Shown one piece after another: positions 1-13,337 of a stretch of 38,387 bases of DNA (position 1 is its first letter; each line of letters begins with the position of its first letter). This stretch comes from Blastocatellia bacterium (lineage in GTDB: Bacteria > Acidobacteriota > Blastocatellia > HR10 > J050), in the NCBI GenBank assembly GCA_026985075.1, contig JALSQX010000063.1:1-38387 (forward strand), written 5' to 3'. The translations under genes and the position numbers were made by a program. The notes below the pieces were generated by a model. It was not told the DNA's origin and made no database searches. It saw only the letters and a program-made list of their open reading frames with translations.

Positions 1-125
1 GGTCGAAGCCTGGGTTGAAGCGCGCAATGCCACGCAAGCCATCGTGAGTTGGCAGTTTACCACGGCAGACGCTCGACGCAAGCTCCATCGCCTATACCCT
101 CAATAATCACTGTGGTAAAGTACTA
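1..125 (+). mobile_element. Right end of an IS630-type insertion
   Basis: This covers the transposase 3' end plus the short non-coding tail after its stop codon (about TCACTGTGGTAAAGTACTA, 107-125). IS630 elements end a few tens of bases after the transposase stop and duplicate a TA target, and TA dinucleotides occur at 121-122 and 124-125. The exact border is inferred: from about 123 onward the sequence reads as a CRISPR spacer instead (see 123-149). The left inverted repeat lies outside the window. Confidence 0.55.
2..106 (+). CDS. IS630-family transposase, C-terminal fragment
   Basis: The window opens inside a reading frame that ends in TAA at 104-106. Its last residues are VEAWVEARNATQ, then SWQFTTADARRKLHRLYPQ. 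The block WQFTTADAR.KL.RLYP is the usual C-terminal end of IS630/Tc1-mariner-type DDE transposases, as I know the family. Only 34 residues are visible, so the catalytic DDE triad lies upstream and the integrity of the element cannot be judged. The stop codon is only 43 bases from the first CRISPR repeat, so the element ends next to or inside the CRISPR array. Confidence 0.75.
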   Translation, partial: VEAWVEARNATQAIVSWQFTTADARRKLHRLYPQ

Positions 126-149: not shown

Positions 150-3100
150 GTGGGAATTCAGGACTCGCTTCAGAGAGGATTGCGACGTCATATCTCTTCA
201 CCTCCATCAAGATTTTTCACGCTCCCATTATGTGGGAATTCAGGACTCGCTTCAGAGAGGATTGCGACTCAGCCCAATTCGTATTTCAGTTTGCGGTGAA
301 CATTGGTGGGAATTCAGGACTCGCTTCAGAGAGGATTGCGACACGATGCTCCCAGTACTCCCCTAGTATTGGGTGGGAGACGTGGGAATTCAGGACTCGC
401 TTCAGAGAGGATTGCGACGCTTAATCATGGCTTCGGCTAGGACGTTGAAGCGTTCGGGTGGGAATTCAGGACTCGCTTCAGAGAGGATTGCGACCGTAAG
501 AGTCAGCAAAGCTAGACCACCGCTTAATCATGGTGGGAATTCAGGACTCGCTTCAGAGAGGATTGCGACACGAACTGGAACACAAACTGAGCACAAAGTC
601 GACCCTCACGTGGGAATTCAGGACTCGCTTCAGAGAGGATTGCGACGCCCCGTGGAGGACTCCGAAGAATATTAAGAGATTGTGCGTGGGAATTCAGGAC
701 TCGCTTCAGAGAGGATTGCGACTTCGTCTGCTTCTTCGAGCACGTCGTCAGACGGCGTGTAGTGGGAATTCAGGACTCGCTTCAGAGAGGATTGCGACCG
801 GTATGACCGATATCCGTCCCCTCATGACCGATGCCGGAAAGTGGGAATTCAGGACTCGCTTCAGAGAGGATTGCGACCGAGCGCCGCTGCAAGACCCCCT
901 CCACGTCGATCTCGTAGAGGGTGGGAATTCAGGACTCGCTTCAGAGAGGATTGCGACTCGGCATCTCCGCTTTTGGAGGCCCGTCTCTCGTAGCAGGTGG
1001 GAATTCAGGACTCGCTTCAGAGAGGATTGCGACTTAAGCGCGCCGCGACTTTGTTGGCGATCTCCCGTTTGACCTGTGGGAATTCAGGACTCGCTTCAGA
1101 GAGGATTGCGACACGCTAGTTGTCTAGTTGTAGAGTGCCCTCAGTTCCGGGGCAGTGGGAATTCAGGACTCGCTTCAGAGAGGATTGCGACCGGTATGAC
1201 CGATATCCGTCCCCTCATGACCGATGCCGGAAAGTGGGAATTCAGGACTCGCTTCAGAGAGGATTGCGACCGAGCGCCGCTGCAAGACCCCCTCCACGTC
1301 GATCTCGTAGAGGGTGGGAATTCAGGACTCGCTTCAGAGAGGATTGCGACTCGGCATCTCCGCTTTTGGAGGCCCGTCTCTCGTAGCAGGTGGGAATTCA
1401 GGACTCGCTTCAGAGAGGATTGCGACCGCTACTAGTTATAAAGCGCCTTCAGCTCTGGCGCATAGTGGGAATTCAGGACTCGCTTCAGAGAGGATTGCGA
1501 CAATCCAACGACGCCGGTCGGGGTCCAAGGATTGCCCCTTGGTGGGAATTCAGGACTCGCTTCAGAGAGGATTGCGACGCCCCTTGCTTCAACAGAACGA
1601 ACACAATGTTCACAACTAGTGGGAATTCAGGACTCGCTTCAGAGAGGATTGCGACTAATCATGATTCACCTCCTTCACCTTGAGATGGGGATCGTGGGAA
1701 TTCAGGACTCGCTTCAGAGAGGATTGCGACCGGTACTCGGACCGAAACCATCGTTAGATGAGCGTGAGGACGTGGGAATTCAGGACTCGCTTCAGAGAGG
1801 ATTGCGACGGTCACAGATATAGACTCTCTGTGGTCTATCCCCTAGCGTGGGAATTCAGGACTCGCTTCAGAGAGGATTGCGACATCCCCGGAGAGCCGAG
1901 GACTCTCCGGGGAGTTGAGGGCGTGGGAATTCAGGACTCGCTTCAGAGAGGATTGCGACCAGTTTGCAAACTGTGTGGGACAGTGACTCCGTCCCACGCC
2001 GTGGGAATTCAGGACTCGCTTCAGAGAGGATTGCGACACAACGAATTGGAAGACGAACGCGGGCGTGAGTTTGCCGTGGGAATTCAGGACTCGCTTCAGA
2101 GAGGATTGCGACAATAGAGCGATAAAACCGCCGCCCTTTCGTCCTCCGGTAGGTGGGAATTCAGGACTCGCTTCAGAGAGGATTGCGACGCTCCGGCTCC
2201 GGGCCCCGACGGTCGGGGTTCTGTGGTGTGGGAATTCAGGACTCGCTTCAGAGAGGATTGCGACAGCTCGATTGGATTTTTACTATCATGCTACCTCCCT
2301 TCACCCGTGGGAATTCAGGACTCGCTTCAGAGAGGATTGCGACAGTGTCCTAACAACTCCCACCACTAGCTGGAAGACGAGCATGTGGGAATTCAGGACT
2401 CGCTTCAGAGAGGATTGCGACGGACCCCGAAGTAAATTCGGAGTCCTTTATCCATCTGCCTGTGGGAATTCAGGACTCGCTTCAGAGAGGATTGCGACAC
2501 AACTTGCCCTCTGCTTCCCAGGATTGCAGGACAGCGTGGGAATTCAGGACTCGCTTCAGAGAGGATTGCGACAGACGTAACGGCGGCTCTCTCGTCCTCG
2601 GGAAGTAAGTCCGTGGGAATTCAGGACTCGCTTCAGAGAGGATTGCGACGCCTAGCGGTCTGGCGCTAGGCAAAAAAAAATCCCCTGGGAGGTGGGAATT
2701 CAGGACTCGCTTCAGAGAGGATTGCGACAGCATGGATAATTCCAACAACAAACTGGAAAACAAAATTGGTGGGAATTCAGGACTCGCTTCAGAGAGGATT
2801 GCGACCCAGGTAAATTTGCGCCAACCCACCATCAAAAAAAATGTGGGAATTCAGGACTCGCTTCAGAGAGGATTGCAACTTGCCGATCCTCCAATCTAAC
2901 TTCTTGTCGCCACTTAAGGTGGGAATTCAGGACTCGCTTCAGAGAGGATTGCGACCCGAACCCTCAGACTCCATAATACGTATCACTTGATCAAGTGGGA
3001 ATTCAGGACTCGCTTCAGAGAGGATTGCAACACTGTCTTAATCCATCAGGAATAAACATCATATCATCACGTGGGAATTCAGGACTCGCTTCAGAGAGGA

Positions 3101-5035
3101 TTGCGACCTTCAGCTCATCAGAGTAAAGCGCTTTGACGGCGCGCGTGGGAATTCAGGACTCGCTTCAGAGAGGATTGCGACATATTCTGATCGACGTTTG
3201 GGAAATCTCTTCGAGTGCTGTGGGAATTCAGGACTCGCTTCAGAGAGGATTGCGACCAGTTTGCAAACTGTGTGGGACAGAGACTCCGTCCCACGCGTGG
3301 GAATTCAGGACTCGCTTCAGAGAGGATTGCGACCCTAAAATCCGCTCACGTAACTCATTGTGTGTCATCGCCGGTGGGAATTCAGGACTCGCTTCAGAGA
3401 GGATTGCGACTCCCCAGGGAAGTGAGTTGAGCTGAAGGCGACTCGACTAGTGGGAATTCAGGACTCGCTTCAGAGAGGATTGCGACTCCCCAGGGAAGTG
3501 AGTTGAGCTGAAGGCGACTCGACTAGTGGGAATTCAGGACTCGCTTCAGAGAGGATTGCGACCGTTCGTCCTCGGGCAGCTCTTCTAATCGCTCTCGCAA
3601 GTGGGAATTCAGGACTCGCTTCAGAGAGGATTGCGACCTTCCCCGTCCGGTGGAGAACCCCACGGACGGGGAAGGAAGTGGGAATTCAGGACTCGCTTCA
3701 GAGAGGATTGCGACCTAATCGCTCTCGCAATTCTTCGTGTGTCATCTCTACCGTGGGAATTCAGGACTCGCTTCAGAGAGGATTGCGACGGCTCCCGAGC
3801 GAGCGAGAGCCGGGGTCGGGTGGGGGGTGGGAATTCAGGACTCGCTTCAGAGAGGATTGCGACCCACAGCAAACTGGAAGCAGAAGTTTGCGTCTAACCT
3901 ACCGTGGGAATTCAGGACTCGCTTCAGAGAGGATTGCGACGAATTTCCCGTGTGGGACATACTCTGTCCCACACAACGTGCGTGGGAATTCAGGACTCGC
4001 TTCAGAGAGGATTGCGACGGTAACATTGCCTCGTAGTAGCCATGGACCTCGACGCGAGTGGGAATTCAGGACTCGCTTCAGAGAGGATTGCGACCACCGA
4101 CAACGAGTCGGTGGGGGACTTCGTCATGCCAATGCGGTGGGAATTCAGGACTCGCTTCAGAGAGGATTGCGACCGAACGATTCCCACTATGAGTTGAAAC
4201 ACAAACTGTGCGGTGGGAATTCAGGACTCGCTTCAGAGAGGATTGCGACCCTACGATGGCATCCGCTCCATCGTCCAGAGTGGTGGGCTTGTGGGAATTC
4301 AGGACTCGCTTCAGAGAGGATTGCGACCAGCTCTGTTGTGAACAGTTTTGACTCATCGACGGCGCTGTGGGAATTCAGGACTCGCTTCAGAGAGGATTGC
4401 GACTAGTGATAATAACGACGTAGATAATTCAGACTCACTTGTGGGAATTCAGGACTCGCTTCAGAGAGGATTGCGACGTCTTTTTGACCCCGATGGGGTA
4501 GCTTGATGTAATCTGTACGTGGGAATTCAGGACTCGCTTCAGAGAGGATTGCGACCTGAGAAATGTGGTTAATGGTGCCTTGCTTTTTCTACTCTGTGGG
4601 AATTCAGGACTCGCTTCAGAGAGGATTGCGACACACCGTGGGCAAAGATGCCCACGATGGCAGTCTCACTGCGTGGGAATTCAGGACTCGCTTCAGAGAG
4701 GATTGCGACGGTAAATTGAAAGACGAAGCTGGCCGTGAGTCGGCCCTCGAGTGGGAATTCAGGACTCGCTTCAGAGAGGATTGCGACCGTCACCTCCCTT
4801 TGATTTTTTTCACGACAATATTGTACTCAACGCAAGTGGGAATTCAGGACTCGCTTCAGAGAGGATTGCGACTCGTCGGGTGCTCCGATGGTCTTCAGGA
4901 TGCCGAGTAGTATGAGAGCCCGGGTGGGAATTCAGGACTCGCTTCAGAGAGGATTGCGACGCCTTGCATCAACAAGGCGCGTACGATTCCCACAACAAGT
5001 GGGAATTCAGGACTCGCTTCAGAGAGGATGGCGAC
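150..5035 (+). CRISPR. CRISPR array, 64 repeats and 63 spacers
   Basis: A 37-bp repeat begins GTGGGAATTC, has CAGGACTCGCTTCAGAGA in the middle and ends GGATTGCGAC. It recurs 64 times with spacers of mostly 37-43 bp (extremes about 45, 48 and 51 bp at 187-231, 4788-4835 and 4873-4923). Repeats are almost invariant. Those at 2843-2879 and 2995-3031 end TTGCAAC, and the last (4999-5035) has GGATGGCGAC. The degenerate copy on the right, and a 3' end (ATTGCGAC) that resembles the ATTGAAAC-type crRNA handle, suggest transcription left to right. No leader is seen, because the left edge is an IS end. The spacer triplet 799-840, 878-920, 958-996 recurs at 1192-1233, 1271-1313, 1351-1389. Spacers 3411-3449 and 3487-3525 are identical. 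No cas gene lies in the window, so the type is unknown. Long spacers and mRNA-antisense content favour type III. Confidence 0.99.
799..1426. repeat. Segmental duplication inside the array
   Basis: Three consecutive spacers with their following repeats (799-1033) recur exactly 393 bp downstream (1192-1426), separated by two unique spacers (1034-1075 and 1113-1154). This is best explained by unequal recombination between identical repeats. It could also partly be an assembly effect, but the unique spacers between the copies argue for a real duplication. Confidence 0.9.
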
Positions 5036-5080
5036 CGCTATAGGCGGAGCGATGTCGTCGGCGTGGAAGTCCGGGAAGTC

Positions 5081-5671
5081 ATGGGAGGCAACGATACGCG
5101 AATAGTGCATGCTCTTCGAGATAGGGGCATCGCACCGGGCGAGTGCTCTTCTCGCGCGAAGGTAAGACGCATTGACAAGGAAGGCAGCGGCTCTGCTCCG
5201 ATTGGGGAGACGCCTGTGCTCGCCATACCGGTATCGTTCGCCTTCATCGACGAGCGACTGGATGAATTTGACTTCTATCTTGTCCTGCTCGACCACAAGT
5301 ACTTCGTCGTCATCGAGAAGACGACCGGATACTGGCTGCATGGTTACGCGCAACTGTCGGCTCACCAGGCGCTCGTTACCGCGACGAGACAGTTGCGTAC
5401 ACATTCGTACCAGACGGTGAAGAATGCCGTAGAGACAAAGCCGAAAATACGCGGCCACGATGCGCGGTGTCCAAACTGCCTTAACAAGTACGATGCCGAG
5501 CGGCTCATTCGTCATCCGGCGCTCGTTCCCGGCATACTCAAGATGCCACCGGTGCTCATACATGGGACGGCGATACGAAAGAAGGAATTCTACCAACTTC
5601 CGGGATGGTGGTTGGTGGTTGATGGCGGCATCCAAACCGTGAGATACCTTCCACCGAAGGAGGTGCGATGA
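5081..5671 (+). CDS. Hypothetical protein, first gene after the CRISPR array
   Basis: This is a protein of 196 residues if it starts at ATG 5081. The open frame continues upstream through the last repeat into the last spacer, and GTG 5063 is an alternative start; neither has a strong ribosome-binding site. It is soluble-looking, with a core of alternating hydrophobic strands (VLAIPVSFAFID, FDFYLVLLDHKYFVVIEK), a helical middle (AHQALVTATRQLRTH), one CPNC pair at Cys130/Cys133, and an aromatic C-terminus (FYQLPGWWLVVDGG). I do not recognise the family. The single CxxC could bind zinc only with other ligands. Its stop overlaps the next start (ATGA at 5668-5671), so it is the first gene of a translationally coupled operon. 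A long frame on the opposite strand (5635-4895) runs into CRISPR repeats and is judged a shadow. Confidence 0.65.
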   Translation: MGGNDTRIVHALRDRGIAPGECSSRAKVRRIDKEGSGSAPIGETPVLAIPVSFAFIDERLDEFDFYLVLLDHKYFVVIEKTTGYWLHGYAQLSAHQALVTATRQLRTHSYQTVKNAVETKPKIRGHDARCPNCLNKYDAERLIRHPALVPGILKMPPVLIHGTAIRKKEFYQLPGWWLVVDGGIQTVRYLPPKEVR

Positions 5672-5859
5672 CCGAGAACATTCGTGATTACATCGCCGGA
5701 TATATCCAGATCGGATTGGTCGTCACTGCCATCGCGCTCACGCTGTCGCCGGAACGGTTAACGCCACGGCGCGTAGCCATGGCTTTCCTCATCGGAGCGA
5801 CGTGGCCCGTCGGCATCGTAATTCTCATGAGAAAGGAGGTGCTGAAAAATGACGAATAA
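5668..5859 (+). CDS. Small two-helix membrane protein, cassette A
   Basis: The product has 63 residues, starting at ATG 5668 directly behind AAGGAGGTGCG and overlapping the previous stop by 4 bp. Two hydrophobic helices are visible (IQIGLVVTAIALTL, about residues 13-26; VAMAFLIGATWPVGIVILM, about 37-55), with a basic, proline-containing loop between (SPERLTPRR) and a short charged tail. It is likely an inner-membrane hairpin protein. The second helix, with its WPV core, matches the second helix of the 89-residue protein at 7117-7386 (VLLTPVAWPVVVALII). In both places the next gene encodes an approximately 100-residue partner, so the pair is duplicated. No function is known to me. Holin-like or membrane-anchor roles are possible from size and topology only. 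Confidence 0.8.
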   Translation: MTENIRDYIAGYIQIGLVVTAIALTLSPERLTPRRVAMAFLIGATWPVGIVILMRKEVLKNDE

Positions 5860-6163
5860 GGGAATCATCGATCGCATTCTGGAAAACAAGCACAACCGCG
5901 AAGCACTCGGCATTCTCAAGCAACTGGTCAACGATCACTTTCGCGATGCAACGCCGGAAACGAAGGGCCTTATTACGGCTCTCGTTGTCTATGTCGTCGG
6001 ACGTATCGCAGATGCGTTAGGCGTGAGCGACGAGGATGTCGAGCGCGTAGCAGAGAAAGAGCCGATTGTCGCGCTCATCTCTGCCGAACGCGATCTCAGG
6101 TCGAACGCCATCCAGAGCGGTGATCTTCTCATTTATCTGAACAAATCTGACGAGCTCAACTGA
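5849..6163 (+). CDS. Small alpha-helical protein, cassette A (paralogue of 7403-7696)
   Basis: The product has 104 residues, with a strong site (AAAGGAGGTG) ahead of ATG 5849. The start overlaps the membrane-protein gene by 11 bp, implying coupled translation. It appears all-helical. The N-terminal half is charged (GIIDRILENKHNREALGILKQ). A conserved P-E-T motif is followed by a hydrophobic helix (GLITALVVYVVGRIADALG, about residues 47-65), then an acidic turn and a C-terminal helix. The 97-residue protein at 7403 has the same plan (DPETQAVIVGIVLSVVWRLADAFGL), so the two are paralogues. The hydrophobic helix could be membrane-inserted or pack against the upstream two-helix protein. I do not recognise the family. 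Confidence 0.8.
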   Translation: MTNKGIIDRILENKHNREALGILKQLVNDHFRDATPETKGLITALVVYVVGRIADALGVSDEDVERVAEKEPIVALISAERDLRSNAIQSGDLLIYLNKSDELN

Positions 6164-6192
6164 CGACCAAGTAAAGAAGGAAGGTGAAGACT

Positions 6193-6705
6193 ATGCATAT
6201 AGAGACAACGAGCTATGCCGAAGACGTACACGATGACTTCGTGTACATTTCTAACCCGTTCGGCGATCTGGTGACGATCACCGGAGCAGTCGAGGCGAAG
6301 ATCATCATGGCCACCGCTCCGGTGGTGTTCACCGGTCGGATCGATGCCGAACACGTTGAGGCTAACTCCATCGGTTTTGTCTACCGCAAGCCGGGCAACG
6401 TGCATGCAACCTGCCTTGCTGGGGGACGCCTGGTGCATATCTGCCGAGCCATAGTTGATGCCGAGACGATTATCAGCGAGGCCATCGTCGTCGATGGCGG
6501 ACTTGTCGAAGTCGAGCGAATGCACACTGAAAGACTCATTCTGGATCGTGGAAGCGCTATACGCGCCAGGAAGATTTTCGCCAATTCGATCGAAATCAGA
6601 GCGGCATCGATCATTCGGGCAAACCAGCTCGAAGCCGGATCGATCGTCGGCCATGCTGTGGATACGGGTGAACTCATCATACGCGACTACGTCAATCTCT
6701 CGTAA
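6193..6705 (+). CDS. Bactofilin-like right-handed beta-helix protein
   Basis: The product has 170 residues from ATG 6193 (AAGGAAGGTG upstream). GTG 6184 is possible but would bury the ribosome-binding site. After about 20 residues the sequence becomes a run of short beta-strand turns of the form G-x-I-x-A-x-x-I (GRIDAEHVEANSIGF, GSAIRARKIFANSIEIRAAS, NQLEAGSIVG). This is the pattern of bactofilins and related polymer-forming beta-solenoids. It lacks transmembrane segments and is slightly longer than a minimal bactofilin core. It closes the four-gene cassette, 29 bp behind the previous stop, and ends 25 bp before the isolated CRISPR repeat at 6731. No copy of it is present in cassette B. Bactofilin-like is a fold-level call; a filament scaffold role is inference. 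Confidence 0.65.
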   Translation: MHIETTSYAEDVHDDFVYISNPFGDLVTITGAVEAKIIMATAPVVFTGRIDAEHVEANSIGFVYRKPGNVHATCLAGGRLVHICRAIVDAETIISEAIVVDGGLVEVERMHTERLILDRGSAIRARKIFANSIEIRAASIIRANQLEAGSIVGHAVDTGELIIRDYVNLS

Positions 6706-6730
6706 CTGGCCGCGCGACTGTGCCGCGCAT

Positions 6731-6767
6731 GTGGGAATTCAGGACTCGCTTCAGAGAGGATGGCGAC
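6731..6767 (+). repeat. Isolated CRISPR repeat closing cassette A
   Basis: This is a full 37-bp copy of the array repeat, 1.7 kb beyond the array end. It carries the same T-to-G change (GGATGGCGAC) as the terminal array repeat 4999-5035. The shared mutation shows that the two copies descend from one another. The four genes between them sit exactly like a giant spacer. Confidence 0.97.
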
Positions 6768-6806
6768 GCCCTTCGTCGGGGCGATACGTTCCGGCGCAGC
6801 AAATTG

Positions 6807-6898
6807 GCCCACAGATGGATACGGGGAAAGCGGGATGAGCACTGATGAAAACGGCAAAATCTGTGAAAACCCTGCCATTAGCTGTGCCATCCGTGGGC
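6807..6898. repeat. Degenerate copy of a 95-bp inverted-repeat element
   Basis: It starts CCCACAGATGGATACGG and ends GCCATCCGTGGG, an imperfect inverted repeat. It has the same internal AAAGCGGGATGAGCAC block as the better copy at 9143-9237. It lies in the 349-bp gap between the isolated repeat and the next gene, where no other gene is seen. A further scrap (AGGCGCAGAAGAAATAGG, about 6954-6971) lies in the same gap. Confidence 0.7.
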
Positions 6899-7029
6899 TG
6901 TGGAGCAGGGGTTCAGGGCTTGCCGTGACGGGAGCAGGGGAGGAGTCCACAGATAGGCGCAGAAGAAATAGGTCGCAGATGCTTCATCTCCCGGCTCACT
7001 CTCAATGATCTCGGAAACGTTCACCGGTA

Positions 7030-7087
7030 GGCACAGAAGAAATAGGCCACAGATGGATACAGAAAGAGCGGGATGAGCACCGATGAT
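7030..7087. repeat. Half copy of the 95-bp inverted-repeat element
   Basis: This carries AGGCACAGAAGAAATAGGCC, then the left arm ACAGATGGATAC and AGAGCGGGATGAGCAC, but lacks the right arm. The same flank (AGGCAGAGAAGAAACAGGCC) precedes the complete copy at 9143. It ends just before the ribosome-binding site of the gene at 7117. Confidence 0.7.
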
Positions 7088-7116
7088 AATGAAATGAAAG
7101 GAAGGAGGTGATGCTG

Positions 7117-7386
7117 ATGAGCGAAATATACGACGGCGACGGTAAGGCTGGAGGTAGGCGGTGGAAGATCCCCCGACCCATCTATATCTGCTCACCCACC
7201 ACGAAGAATGACATAGGTGGGCGGTGGAAGATTCTCCCGACCCGTCTCTTCCTCGTCTCCCATGGCATCAGCATCGCCGCCGCCGGACTATGCGGAGCAC
7301 TCGATGAGGAGAATGCCAGAGCGGTCGCGCTGGTTCTGCTCACCCCAGTGGCGTGGCCGGTCGTGGTCGCCCTGATCATCCATTGA
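7117..7386 (+). CDS. Small membrane protein, cassette B (paralogue of 5668-5859)
   Basis: The product has 89 residues from ATG 7117, with AAGGAGGTG nine bases upstream (GTG 7108 and ATG 7111 overlap or crowd that site). The N-terminal 40 residues are polar and contain a short internal duplication (GGRRWKIPRP and GGRWKILPTR, also visible in the DNA). Two hydrophobic helices follow (LFLVSHGISIAAAGLCGAL and ARAVALVLLTPVAWPVVVALII). The second, with its WPV core, matches the protein at 5668. It sits 16 bp ahead of its approximately 100-residue partner, as in cassette A. It is probably an inner-membrane hairpin; function unknown. Confidence 0.75.
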   Translation: MSEIYDGDGKAGGRRWKIPRPIYICSPTTKNDIGGRWKILPTRLFLVSHGISIAAAGLCGALDEENARAVALVLLTPVAWPVVVALIIH

Positions 7387-7402
7387 GGAGGTGAGAGGAG
7401 CT

Positions 7403-7696
7403 ATGAACAGCATGTTACCGTTTCTGCTCAGCCCCGCGGCTCGAAAAGCGCTGGGCCAGTTGCACAAGATGATCCAGGACCAACTCCCCAAGGCCGATCC
7501 GGAAACACAAGCCGTGATCGTGGGGATCGTCCTCTCCGTCGTCTGGCGCCTGGCCGATGCCTTTGGCCTCGATGGAGACGTGGCCCGGGCCAAAGCAGAG
7601 GTGTTCCCTCTGGCCGGGCTCGTGCTGGCGGCCAGAGAGGTGGGTGACTACCTCAAGCTGACCGAAGCGGATAAGAAGATCACCGAGACTCACTGA
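7403..7696 (+). CDS. Small helical protein, cassette B (paralogue of 5849-6163)
   Basis: The product has 97 residues from ATG 7403 behind GAGAGGAGCT. The layout repeats that of the cassette A protein: N-terminal amphipathic helix (ARKALGQLHKMIQDQ), a D-P-E-T turn, a hydrophobic helix ending in RLADAFGLDGD (cassette A: RIADALGVSDED), then a helix with Ala-Leu-rich pattern and a K/E-rich tail. Identity is modest outside these blocks, so the duplication is old. Its stop lies 6 bp before the third isolated repeat (7703-7739). Together with the gene before it, it forms a two-gene operon that lacks the first and fourth genes of cassette A. Confidence 0.78.
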   Translation: MNSMLPFLLSPAARKALGQLHKMIQDQLPKADPETQAVIVGIVLSVVWRLADAFGLDGDVARAKAEVFPLAGLVLAAREVGDYLKLTEADKKITETH

Positions 7697-7702
7697 TCTC
7701 AA

Positions 7703-7739
7703 GTGGGTGTCCGGGACTCGCTGCAGAGAGAATTGCGCC
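7703..7739 (+). repeat. Decayed isolated CRISPR repeat closing cassette B
   Basis: This 37-bp segment matches the array repeat at 30 of 37 positions by my count. The blocks GGGACTCGCT and CAGAGAG are kept, and it ends AATTGCGCC. It lies immediately after the second small-gene cassette. Greater decay with distance from the array (identical, then one change, then seven changes) suggests the repeats are older to the right. Confidence 0.85.
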
Positions 7740-7832: not shown

Positions 7833-9071
7833 ATGGAATCCACACTGCTTTGGGTGATCGTCGTCTCCGTCTTTCTCCTCATCGGCCTCCTGATCGGATT
7901 CCGACTGGGAGGCCGGCTGGCGGCTTCGCCGGACCTCTCCTGGGAGTTGAAGAGGCTTCGGGAGGACATCGCCAGAATCGACGAGAAAGTCGTTGACTCT
8001 TCCGAGAAGCAACTGGAGCGAGGTGAGAGGCAGTCGACCGAGGTGCGACGCGAAGTGGAGCAGAAGCTGGCCGACTTCAGGACCCAGATCGAAAACACCA
8101 TCAGTCGGTTTCAGCAGTCCATTGGCGAATCGGATGAGCAGAGCCGACAACTCATCGATCGACTGCGGCAGTCGCTCCTTGAGCAAATCGAGCAGATCAG
8201 CCGGCAGGTGACCGAGAAGCTCTCCGGCACCGGCGAGATGATCCAGCAGTTGGGACAACAGCTTGGCGAGTTGGGCAAGGCTCAGAGCGAACTCGAACGC
8301 ATCACCAGGGGCCTGGAGCGGGCTCTGGGGAGTCCCAAGGCGATCGGGGAGTTCGGAGAGAAGATACTGGGCCATATTCTCCGGGATGTGCTGCCCCAAT
8401 CTATGTTTGAACTCCAGTACAACATTGCCGGCAACCTCGTTGATGCGGCAGTGAGGGTTGGGGATGATAAGTGGCTCCCTATCGACTCCAAATTCCCCCT
8501 GCAAAATCTTCGCCGGGCCTGGGAGGCAGACAACGATCAGGAGAGGAACAAGGCCATGAGGGAGTTCATCAAAGATTTCCGGCTCCGAGTGGACGAGATC
8601 AGTTCCAAGTACATCCGACCCGATAAGGGAACCCTGGATTTTGCGTTCATGTTCATACCGAGCGAGAGGGTTTATTTCGAGGTGCTCAGTCCCGGGATAA
8701 GCCGGGACACCGTGGGCTACGCCATGGAGAAGAAGGTCTTGCCGGTCAGTCCGAACTCCCTCTTCGCCTACCTGAGCGCCGTGGTCGTCGCTTTTCAGGG
8801 CAAGCAGATCGAGCGCCAGGCCCAAAGAGTGCTCAACTCCCTGAATCGGCTGAGTCAACTCCTGAGCGAGGTGGAAGAGAGTATTCAGAAGAGCGAGCGC
8901 CAGACCGGTCATGCCAAAAGTAACATCGAAGACGCTGTTGGCAAGATTCAGCGACTCAGAGAAGAACTCGATACCCTCCATAGGATGAAACTGGAGCGGG
9001 CTGAGGAGCGGGGAGCGCTATCCCATGCCGAGGCTCAGCCAGAACTGGTCGAGTTTGCCGAGGAGGATTAG
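7833..9071 (+). CDS. rmuC: RmuC family DNA recombination protein
   Basis: The product has 412 residues from ATG 7833 behind ATAAGGAGGGCACG. A single N-terminal membrane helix (LLWVIVVSVFLLIGLLIGF) is followed by a long Gln/Glu/Arg-rich coiled coil (about residues 35-165). The conserved RmuC domain follows (about 165-380), with LGHILRDVLPQSMFELQYN, PIDSKFPLQNL and FMFIPSERVYFEVLS. These motifs and the length are typical. RmuC limits inversion and recombination at short inverted repeats and has a nuclease-like fold. Its position directly after the CRISPR-flanked cassettes may be chance, as it looks like ordinary chromosome, but a link with the many inverted repeats here is possible. Convergent with the cytochrome gene. 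Confidence 0.95.
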   Translation: MESTLLWVIVVSVFLLIGLLIGFRLGGRLAASPDLSWELKRLREDIARIDEKVVDSSEKQLERGERQSTEVRREVEQKLADFRTQIENTISRFQQSIGESDEQSRQLIDRLRQSLLEQIEQISRQVTEKLSGTGEMIQQLGQQLGELGKAQSELERITRGLERALGSPKAIGEFGEKILGHILRDVLPQSMFELQYNIAGNLVDAAVRVGDDKWLPIDSKFPLQNLRRAWEADNDQERNKAMREFIKDFRLRVDEISSKYIRPDKGTLDFAFMFIPSERVYFEVLSPGISRDTVGYAMEKKVLPVSPNSLFAYLSAVVVAFQGKQIERQAQRVLNSLNRLSQLLSEVEESIQKSERQTGHAKSNIEDAVGKIQRLREELDTLHRMKLERAEERGALSHAEAQPELVEFAEED

Positions 9072-9142
9072 GAGTTTCTCTCTTGCATTGTAAGTTGATT
9101 CGGCGCCGGGAATGAGCCCGCAGACAGGCAGAGAAGAAACAG

Positions 9143-9237
9143 GCCACAGATGGACACGGAAAAAGCGGGATGTGCACGGGTGAAAAAATGGGAGAAGATC
9201 GGTGAAGATCCCGCCGTTCGCTGTGTCCATCTGTGGC
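9143..9237. repeat. 95-bp element with 15-bp perfect terminal inverted repeats
   Basis: GCCACAGATGGACAC at 9143-9157 is perfectly inverted at 9223-9237, enclosing an AAAAAGCGGGATGTGCACGGG block. Related copies lie at 6807-6898 and 7030-7087. The size and structure suit a short palindromic or MITE-like intergenic repeat. No ORF lies within it. Confidence 0.8.
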
Positions 9238-9277
9238 TGTTGGGCGAGACGGACAGAGAGGGATTCGATGCGGAGTC

Positions 9278-12347: not shown

Positions 12348-12559
12348 GGTCGCCTCCTTGTGTTCCTCCTCGTTGGAGGAGGCATGATCAAATCACGTCG
12401 TGAAAAGTGCCTCGTGGCAGGGAGGTTCTACTCTCTCCGGGAACGGTGTTTCAAGGACAGTTGTCGCAAAAGAAGTGGGACATATGTCTCATTGTGAGGA
12501 GTAACGGCGGGCTTCGCGGGTGGGAAGATGCAGTGAATGAGCTGGCCATGTAGCGTTCA

Positions 12560-12835
12560 ATTGACTCCTCCCCGCCGGCGAGCGGCGGGGCTTCTGGGAA
12601 GATGGAATATTGGCCTCTCTGCTAGCTGGCACCTGATTCCTCCCCGCCGACTGGCGGCGGGGTTTCCCTGTGGGGAGAGGTGTCTCGAGCGAGCTGGCAC
12701 CGTGACTCCTCCCCGCCGGCGAGCGGCGGGGTTTCTGGGAGATGGCATGCAGCTCTTTGGACGAGGTGACATCATGACGTTTCCCCGCGGACGAGCGGCG
12801 GGGTTTCCCTCCAGGCTCTGGGGCTTGTCCCCGGG
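12560..12835 (-). repeat. Hairpin-repeat island 1 (minus-strand orientation)
   Basis: On the minus strand this reads as at least four units of AAGCCCCGCCGCT-loop-GGCGGGGAGGAGTCA, about 70 bp apart. Stems lie near 12566-12590, 12640-12665, 12708-12730 and 12782-12802, with variable stretches between. Stem arms change together (GCCGGCGAGCGGC, GCCGACTGGCGGC, GCGGACGAGCGGC). Short ORFs here encode only the repeat (GKPRR..AGR) and are not genes. The unit resembles hairpins found at the right end of IS200/IS605-type elements, but no tnpA or tnpB is present. Confidence 0.85.
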
Positions 12836-12842
12836 GTCCGTG

Positions 12843-12978
12843 ACGTGCCAGCTCGTCCCCGGCGCGTTCCACATTCAGGAAAGCCCCGGAGCTGGACTCC
12901 GGGGATGGTTACGTGCCAGCTCGTCCCCGGCGCGTTCCACATTCAGGAAAGCCCCGGAGCTGGACTCCGGGGATGGTT
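12843..12978 (+). repeat. Exact 68-bp tandem duplication of a hairpin unit
   Basis: Two identical 68-bp units (12843-12910 and 12911-12978) each contain GTGCCAGCTCGTCC, GAAAGCCCCGGAG and CTCCGGGGATGGTTAC. The hairpin AGCCCCGGAG / CTCCGGGG is the plus-strand version of the units in 12560-12835. The remaining gap to the S9 peptidase gene (12979-13337) shows no gene; I see nothing firm in it. Confidence 0.9.
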
Positions 12979-13337
12979 ACTTTGTCAGCGGTGACGGGCG
13001 AGTGTTCAAGGGCGCTCTCATAGCATCCCTTCAGAGCCTCGCACGTCTGGAGAGTTGAATGCGCCTTGATCTCGCTCTGGACTTGTCCACCCCGGTAGTG
13101 TATTTTTTGCCTCCATGTGGTTCCCCCAACGTCATGAGATCGCGTTCAACCCACCATTATGGTCGGTGCGCCGGGGCAGCACGCTTCTTCAAGACACCGA
13201 TCAGGCGAGCATAGCTCAATCTCATGCTCGGCGCGCCGATGGCCAATGGCAGGTTGAACCGTCGATCGCAGGCTGAGTAGTCGGCGCGAGCTGGGGAACC
13301 CTCTCATGACCATCGACTTCAACTCGAGGAGGGCATC

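What the first reader, a model, noticed from the sequence alone, without database searches (positions are those of the whole stretch)
5036..7739. Gene cassettes bounded by CRISPR repeats, like giant spacers
Downstream of the array, two groups of small genes are each closed by an isolated CRISPR repeat. Cassette A is 5036-6730 (four genes) and cassette B is 6768-7702 (two genes). The repeat at 6731-6767 shares the GGATGGCGAC mutation with the array's last repeat, so they are related by descent. The repeat at 7703-7739 keeps 30 of 37 positions. Genes end 25 and 6 bp before the repeats. This layout could result from insertion of gene cassettes between repeats by recombination, or from an old array eroded by gene acquisition. 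Either way a gene operon sits where spacers should be. The products match no CRISPR ancillary protein I know.
Basis: partly seen in the sequence, partly recalled or inferred. Interest (0 to 1): 0.9.

Follow-up and report, generated by a model that had tools for sequence, protein, structure and literature searches.

The report
Gene-sized inserts between terminal CRISPR repeats
At the old end of a large bacterial CRISPR array, two stretches of foreign-looking genes sit where short spacers should be, each bounded by a real CRISPR repeat, and a relative carries a different insert at the same position, so array ends can occasionally take up gene-sized DNA.

Summary
The repeats at 6731-6767 (36/37) and 7703-7739 (30/37) are real: shuffled sequence gives at most 25/37. 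Of about 170 repeats in this genome only the two flanking cassette A share the mutation GGATGGCGAC, so they are copies of one another. The window is the leader-distal end of an array whose repeat is that of a type III CRISPR locus. Cassettes A and B carry orphan genes with no relative found in any database searched, but share a diverged two-gene pair (small membrane protein plus helical protein). A has lower GC than the host; B does not. A relative in the same family independently has a 775-bp low-GC insert, beginning inside a truncated gene, exactly between its penultimate and terminal repeats. A second array end in that genome has an ordinary 38-nt spacer at that place. About 60 other array loci of the class show nothing similar. 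One published precedent exists (899 bp of plasmid DNA between two repeats, S. solfataricus locus F). Best reading: rare capture of foreign DNA at trailer repeats by recombination or repair, not a dedicated cassette system, not functional spacers. Which enzyme did it is undecided.

The parts
150..5035 (+). leader-distal part of a CRISPR array, 64 repeats of 37 nt, spacers 35-51 nt
   Evidence: same repeat as the 104-repeat array of contig C41, which lies beside cas1 and cas2
4999..5035 (+). last array repeat, carries T-to-G (GGATGGCGAC) in the presumed 8-nt crRNA handle
5036..6730 (+). insert A (1695 bp, 55.4% GC against 61.3% for the window after 7740)
5081..5671 (+). 196-aa orphan protein, probably 5'-truncated; frame open from 4964 through the repeat
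5668..5859 (+). 63-aa small membrane protein (two hydrophobic segments); weak similarity to phage protein family phrog_4955 and to GhoT/OrtT
5849..6163 (+). 104-aa all-helical orphan protein (HelA)
6184..6705 (+). 173-aa orphan protein, probably beta-repeat (judged from sequence only)
6731..6767 (+). isolated CRISPR repeat, identical to the repeat at 4999-5035
6768..7702 (+). insert B (935 bp, 58.4% GC); 6803-7106 mostly dispersed MITE-like repeats
7114..7386 (+). small membrane protein, homologous over 39 aa to the 63-aa protein of insert A
   Evidence: alignment score 49 against shuffle mean 24.2, sd 4.5
7406..7696 (+). helical orphan protein (HelB), 40% identical to HelA over 75 aa
7703..7739 (+). 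degenerate isolated CRISPR repeat (30/37), probably the ancestral terminal repeat

Best explanation
This is the worn leader-distal (trailer) end of a large CRISPR array whose repeat belongs to a type III locus. On at least two occasions foreign DNA was captured between the terminal repeats. Shown: real repeats on both sides, a private mutation shared by the repeats flanking A, foreign-like composition of A, orphan genes, and an independent insert at the same position in a relative. Inferred: B came first and A later. At each event DNA of a mobile element was joined to the array at a repeat, by repeat-mediated recombination or by repair of a break at a repeat, which pushed the old terminal repeat outwards. 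The displaced repeats no longer serve crRNA production and decay (7703 is older than 6731). The genes lie in the same direction as the array and may be co-transcribed, but nothing suggests they work as spacers or as CRISPR accessory proteins. Retention by drift, or through an unknown benefit of the membrane/helical gene pair, is open.
For: Repeats far beyond chance. Private T-to-G mutation shared only by the two repeats flanking A. GC and GC3 of A genes 52-56 and 62-69 against 60-63 and 73-75 for neighbours, while B genes are host-like (60-61.5 and 71-76), so A looks younger. Genes absent from 118 relatives, 396 genomes of the phylum, GTDB and IMG/VR scans, phages and plasmids. Same-family genome G002: ordinary 40-nt spacer, perfect repeat, 775 bp at 47.7% GC (rest of that contig 56.1%) open from the repeat in a 245-aa orphan frame, terminal repeat (34/37), trailer. 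Its other array end (C46) has a 38-nt last spacer and the same terminal repeat plus trailer at 90% identity over 197 nt. Only these two genomes show gene-sized inserts past array ends among about 60 array loci of the class. Published precedent: 899 bp of pNOB8-like plasmid DNA between two repeats in S. solfataricus locus F; those authors suggest Cas1-assisted cleavage and repair as the cause of structural change (PMC4390879).
Against: No donor element was found, so 'foreign' rests on composition and on absence from relatives. No strain with an empty site for A or B exists in the data: the same-genus genome breaks before this region. The two inserts share a homologous gene pair, which random capture does not predict. 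The enzyme is unknown.
Confidence: 0.52

Rival explanations
1. In-place duplication or array collapse: the terminal repeat with its adjoining genes was tandemly duplicated, or intermediate arrays collapsed by recombination to single repeats, leaving repeat-genes-repeat-genes-repeat.
For: A and B share a homologous membrane/helical gene pair in the same order. Tandem copies of 'repeat 3' end plus trailer' do occur at both array ends of G002. Block duplications are present in this array: three spacers repeated at 799-1033 and 1192-1426, and one at 3411/3487. Recombination between repeats is the accepted cause of array deletions and duplications (PMC8047081).
Against: The paralogues are only 35-40% identical while the repeats between them are identical. 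The family is absent from all relatives, so an ancient in-place duplication is unlikely. A and B differ in GC. No DNA-level homology between A and B.
Confidence: 0.18
2. Oversized spacer integration: Cas1-Cas2, or an aborted integration that leaves a staggered break at a repeat, joined long DNA at the terminal repeat and duplicated the repeat in the process.
For: It would explain at once the flush junctions and the two identical mutated repeats around A. Ectopic integration inside arrays is known (PMC8047081). An active-looking cas1-cas2 pair sits beside the other array with this repeat.
Against: Known integrases measure spacer length (general knowledge); all 166 spacers here are 35-51 nt. Inserts are not multiples of the unit. 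In G002 the two flanking repeats differ, so no repeat duplication is visible there.
Confidence: 0.13
3. A mobile element carrying its own copy of the host repeat (as mini-arrays or single repeats of some viruses do) recombined into the array through that repeat.
For: Gives repeat-DNA-repeat by one crossover and would explain why both inserts carry the same gene pair before a repeat. Virus-borne mini-arrays and single repeats with host identity are known (PMC8730458).
Against: No phage, plasmid or viral contig holds this repeat or its relatives' repeats. The inserts are too small to be whole elements and hold no replication or integration gene.
Confidence: 0.12
4. CRISPR-associated function: the genes are accessory or addiction genes kept in the array on purpose, comparable to CreTA.
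For: Same direction as the array; small membrane protein with sub-threshold similarity to GhoT/OrtT toxins.
Against: No match to defence or CRISPR families; absent from every relative with the same kind of locus; no repeat-spacer-repeat element; the G002 insert is a truncated unrelated gene.
Confidence: 0.04
5. Assembly artefact: unrelated contigs joined at the 37-bp repeat.
For: Both genomes are fragmented, and contigs in them end within arrays.
Against: The assembly resolved an exact 273-bp duplication in this array and 265 units in another, so 37 bp is no obstacle. Two genomes show the layout. The private mutation marks just the two repeats around A.
Confidence: 0.02

Closest known systems
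899-bp pNOB8-like plasmid fragment between two repeats in CRISPR locus F of Sulfolobus solfataricus (PMC4390879)
   Same: Gene-sized DNA bounded directly by CRISPR repeats, attributed to structural change at repeats; a single reported oddity in its clade
   Different: There the donor plasmid family is known and the locus is leaderless. Here there are two successive inserts with apparently intact small genes, no known donor, and a second insert in a relative.
Spacer block deletions and duplications by recombination between repeats (PMC8047081)
   Same: Direct repeats as recombination substrate; such duplications are present in this array
   Different: The usual events only reshuffle spacer-repeat units and bring in no genes
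CreTA and other ectopic repeats (PMC9458426)
   Same: Diverged repeats outside the regular array, near cas loci
   Different: CreTA is a small RNA pair with a repeat-spacer-repeat-like guide for Cascade; here the repeats are 0.9-1.7 kb apart around protein genes in a type III setting
Virus-borne mini-arrays and single repeats (PMC8730458, citing Medvedeva 2019)
   Same: Could supply a repeat for recombination
   Different: No such element found carrying this repeat

Membership tests
CRISPR array of a type III locus | regular 37-nt repeats with 35-51-nt unique spacers | tested here: met
CRISPR array of a type III locus | adjacent cas1-cas2 plus RAMP and CARF-type effector genes | tested here: met
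   met for the same repeat on contig C41; the physical link to this window was not shown and the subtype was not tested
Large mobile-element fragment between two repeats (S. solfataricus locus F kind) | long DNA directly bounded by two array repeats | tested here: met
   also G002
Large mobile-element fragment between two repeats (S. solfataricus locus F kind) | insert matches a mobile element | tested here: inconclusive
   no donor found; lower GC and a weak phage-family hit for one small protein
CreTA addiction module | repeat - short guide - repeat producing a crRNA-like antitoxin beside a toxic RNA | tested here: not met
   isolated repeats are 935 and 1695 bp apart; no such element
Integron-like gene cassettes | recombination sites plus a site-specific integrase, cassettes exchanged as units | tested here: not met
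   no integrase recognised among the ORFs beside the inserts; no insert shared between genomes
CRISPR ancillary proteins | match to a known Cas, CARF or defence family | tested here: not met
Functional giant spacers | transcribed and processed into crRNA | not testable with these tools
   needs small-RNA sequencing; the mutated handle in both flanking repeats argues against it

The most novel reading that the evidence does not exclude
CRISPR arrays of this family have a second, length-unrestricted capture route at their trailer end: the adaptation machinery, or breaks it makes, joins kilobase pieces of invading DNA at the terminal repeat. The old end of the array then acts as an entry site for whole genes.
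Probability: 0.13. Interest if true: 0.8.

Novelty: new variant of a known kind. Interest (0 to 1): 0.42.

Why it matters
Arrays are thought to change only by adding, losing or copying short spacer units. Two independent gene-sized inserts at the trailer end in one bacterial family, with one old archaeal precedent, suggest a rare but recurring process that spacer-finding software would mostly overlook. It gives a concrete test: whether the adaptation enzymes or repeat recombination cause such insertions, and whether array ends serve as entry points for foreign genes.

Tried and rejected
Relatives of the insert genes were sought in GTDB contigs, IMG/VR, phages, plasmids, relatives and the phylum: none. 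One class-level hit to HelA/HelB (E 0.006, inside a 1092-residue open frame) was taken as chance. Spacers were compared with the inserts: only chance-level matches (best 13 nt exact). Similarity just after the two mutated repeats looked suggestive by eye but is not significant (12% of random pairs as good), so it is not used. DNA-level homology between A and B: none. Mobile-element copies of the repeat: none. Structure: HelA modelled as a helical bundle (pLDDT 84, only two sequences) with no meaningful PDB match; the 196-aa protein gave no usable model. Promoter and terminator scans are at shuffle level and Rfam finds nothing. Insert lengths as multiples of the repeat-spacer unit: not so. An apparent extra stray repeat in G006 is ordinary array erosion.

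Full report
Observation. The array runs from 150 to 5035 (64 repeats). Beyond it, allowing 13 mismatches on both strands, only two further copies of the 37-nt repeat exist: 6731-6767 (36/37) and 7703-7739 (30/37). In 300 shuffles of the 33 kb after the array the best chance match was 25/37. The T-to-G change shared by the repeats at 4999 and 6731 occurs in no other of the 169 close copies in the genome; all 104 repeats of contig C41 are perfect. It lies in the last eight bases, which in type III systems would form the crRNA 5' handle (general knowledge), as expected for a repeat that had become terminal. So one of these two repeats is a copy of the other.

Setting. The window is the whole contig C63. 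Its array has the same repeat as a 104-repeat array on C41 that lies next to cas1, cas2, RAMP and CARF-type genes and runs off that contig's end. The first 105 bases of the window encode a C-terminal tail also found at the ends of contigs C66 and C4, which looks like a multi-copy element interrupting the array at its left edge. In relatives of the same order the cas1-bearing loci have related repeats. The mutated last repeat and the displaced degenerate repeat put the trailer end on the right.

The inserts. Insert A (1695 bp) holds a 196-aa or longer frame that is open through the repeat from 4964, a 63-aa membrane protein, a 104-aa helical protein and a 173-aa protein. Insert B (935 bp) holds dispersed repeat sequence, then a membrane protein and a helical protein. 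The helical proteins of A and B are homologous (40% over 75 aa, E 5e-15), and so are the membrane proteins (score 49 against a shuffle mean of 24.2, sd 4.5). None of the genes has a confident family match in Pfam, NCBIfam, PADLOC or PHROGs, and the two larger proteins have none among PDB sequences. The helical pair is absent from 118 relatives and 396 genomes of the phylum, and close relatives of the tested genes were not found in GTDB, viral, phage or plasmid collections. GC of A genes is 52-56% (GC3 62-69) against 60-63% (73-75) for the neighbouring housekeeping-type genes; B genes match the host. So A looks recent, B old, in agreement with the state of their outer repeats (identical copy against 7 mismatches).

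Comparison with relatives. In G001 (same genus, Cas1 98% identical) DNA of the window from about 14.0 kb on is conserved at 91-92%, but its contig starts there. No nucleotide match to 5036-12.5 kb other than dispersed repeats was seen among the matches listed, and RmuC, the gene after the last repeat, is not detected in G001 or G002. In G002 (same family) contig C19 reads, in array direction: a 40-nt spacer, a perfect repeat, 775 bp of 47.7% GC (rest of the contig 56.1%), a terminal repeat with 3 mismatches, then trailer. The 775 bp are open from the repeat onward in one frame that ends after 245 aa, i.e. a gene without its start; it is single copy and has no relative in 57 other genomes, phages, plasmids or IMG/VR. 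Contig C46 of the same genome has another end of an array with the same repeat: an ordinary 38-nt last spacer, a terminal repeat, and the same trailer (90% over 197 nt with the repeat's end). This is an occupied/empty pair inside one genome, and it shows that the insert takes the place of the last spacer.

Base rate. I collected loci around Cas1 genes across the class and scanned about 60 array-bearing loci for displaced repeats. Apart from the window and G002, isolated copies were erosion within about 150 bp of the array, lone weak copies, or second full arrays separated by genes. Gene-sized inserts are therefore rare and both examples lie in one family.

Mechanism. Insertion of foreign DNA at the trailer repeats, by repeat-mediated recombination or break repair, explains most of the data. 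Simple in-place duplication would explain the shared gene pair and the copied repeat, but the pair is too diverged, and absent from all relatives, while the repeats between are identical. Oversized integration by Cas1-Cas2 would explain the copied repeat around A, but the spacer lengths are tightly kept (35-51 nt) and the repeats around the G002 insert are not copies. A mobile element bearing a repeat would explain the repeated gene pair, but none is known. No spacer matches the inserts beyond chance, so they are not leftovers of targeted elements as far as the present spacers tell.

Known relatives of the phenomenon. [quoted passage not shown] solfataricus and proposes Cas1-assisted cleavage and repair as a source of structural change (PMC4390879). 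Recombination between repeats is the usual explanation for array rearrangements (PMC8047081). The window is therefore a new and richer variant of a rare, known irregularity, not a new system. No paper describing genes in this position as a system was found in eight literature searches; the library covers open-access papers only.

Noticed in passing
L080:2450-2486 (G002): A lone degenerate repeat (30/37) lies between a small gene and a CARF-type gene upstream of cas1-cas2; possible ectopic regulatory repeat.
   Followed up: partly
L087:3711-3747 (G009): A lone repeat-like copy (5 mismatches to the G006 repeat) on the strand opposite to the array, upstream of cas1.
   Followed up: no
window 1-105: C-terminal 34 aa of a protein present at the ends of contigs C66 and C4 as well; probably a transposase of a multi-copy element that interrupts the array.
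   Followed up: partly
L136 (G000:C4): The same genome has another array with at least 265 repeats (GTCGTAATCGAACCAATGTGGGATTGAAAC) on the contig of a second cas1; with 104 + 64 repeats here, an unusually large spacer load.
   Followed up: no
window 761-1033 and 1154-1426; 3411/3487: Exact duplication of a three-spacer block and a tandem duplication of one spacer inside the array.
   Followed up: partly
window 6791-6902, 7029-7089, 9126-9240: Dispersed MITE-like repeat (CACAGATGGACACGG...), seen elsewhere in the genome.
   Followed up: no
window 12537-13058: Dispersed coding-like repeat 'TPPRRRAAGFLG' with many copies in G000 (contig C95 especially) and in G001.
   Followed up: no
window 7833-9071: RmuC family gene directly after the last repeat, not detected in the same-genus and same-family genomes; part of a variable island reaching to about 12.5 kb.
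   Followed up: partly
L127:553-749 and L128 (G002): Two array ends in different surroundings share the terminal repeat and trailer, and the repeat 3' end plus trailer is itself tandemly repeated.
   Followed up: partly
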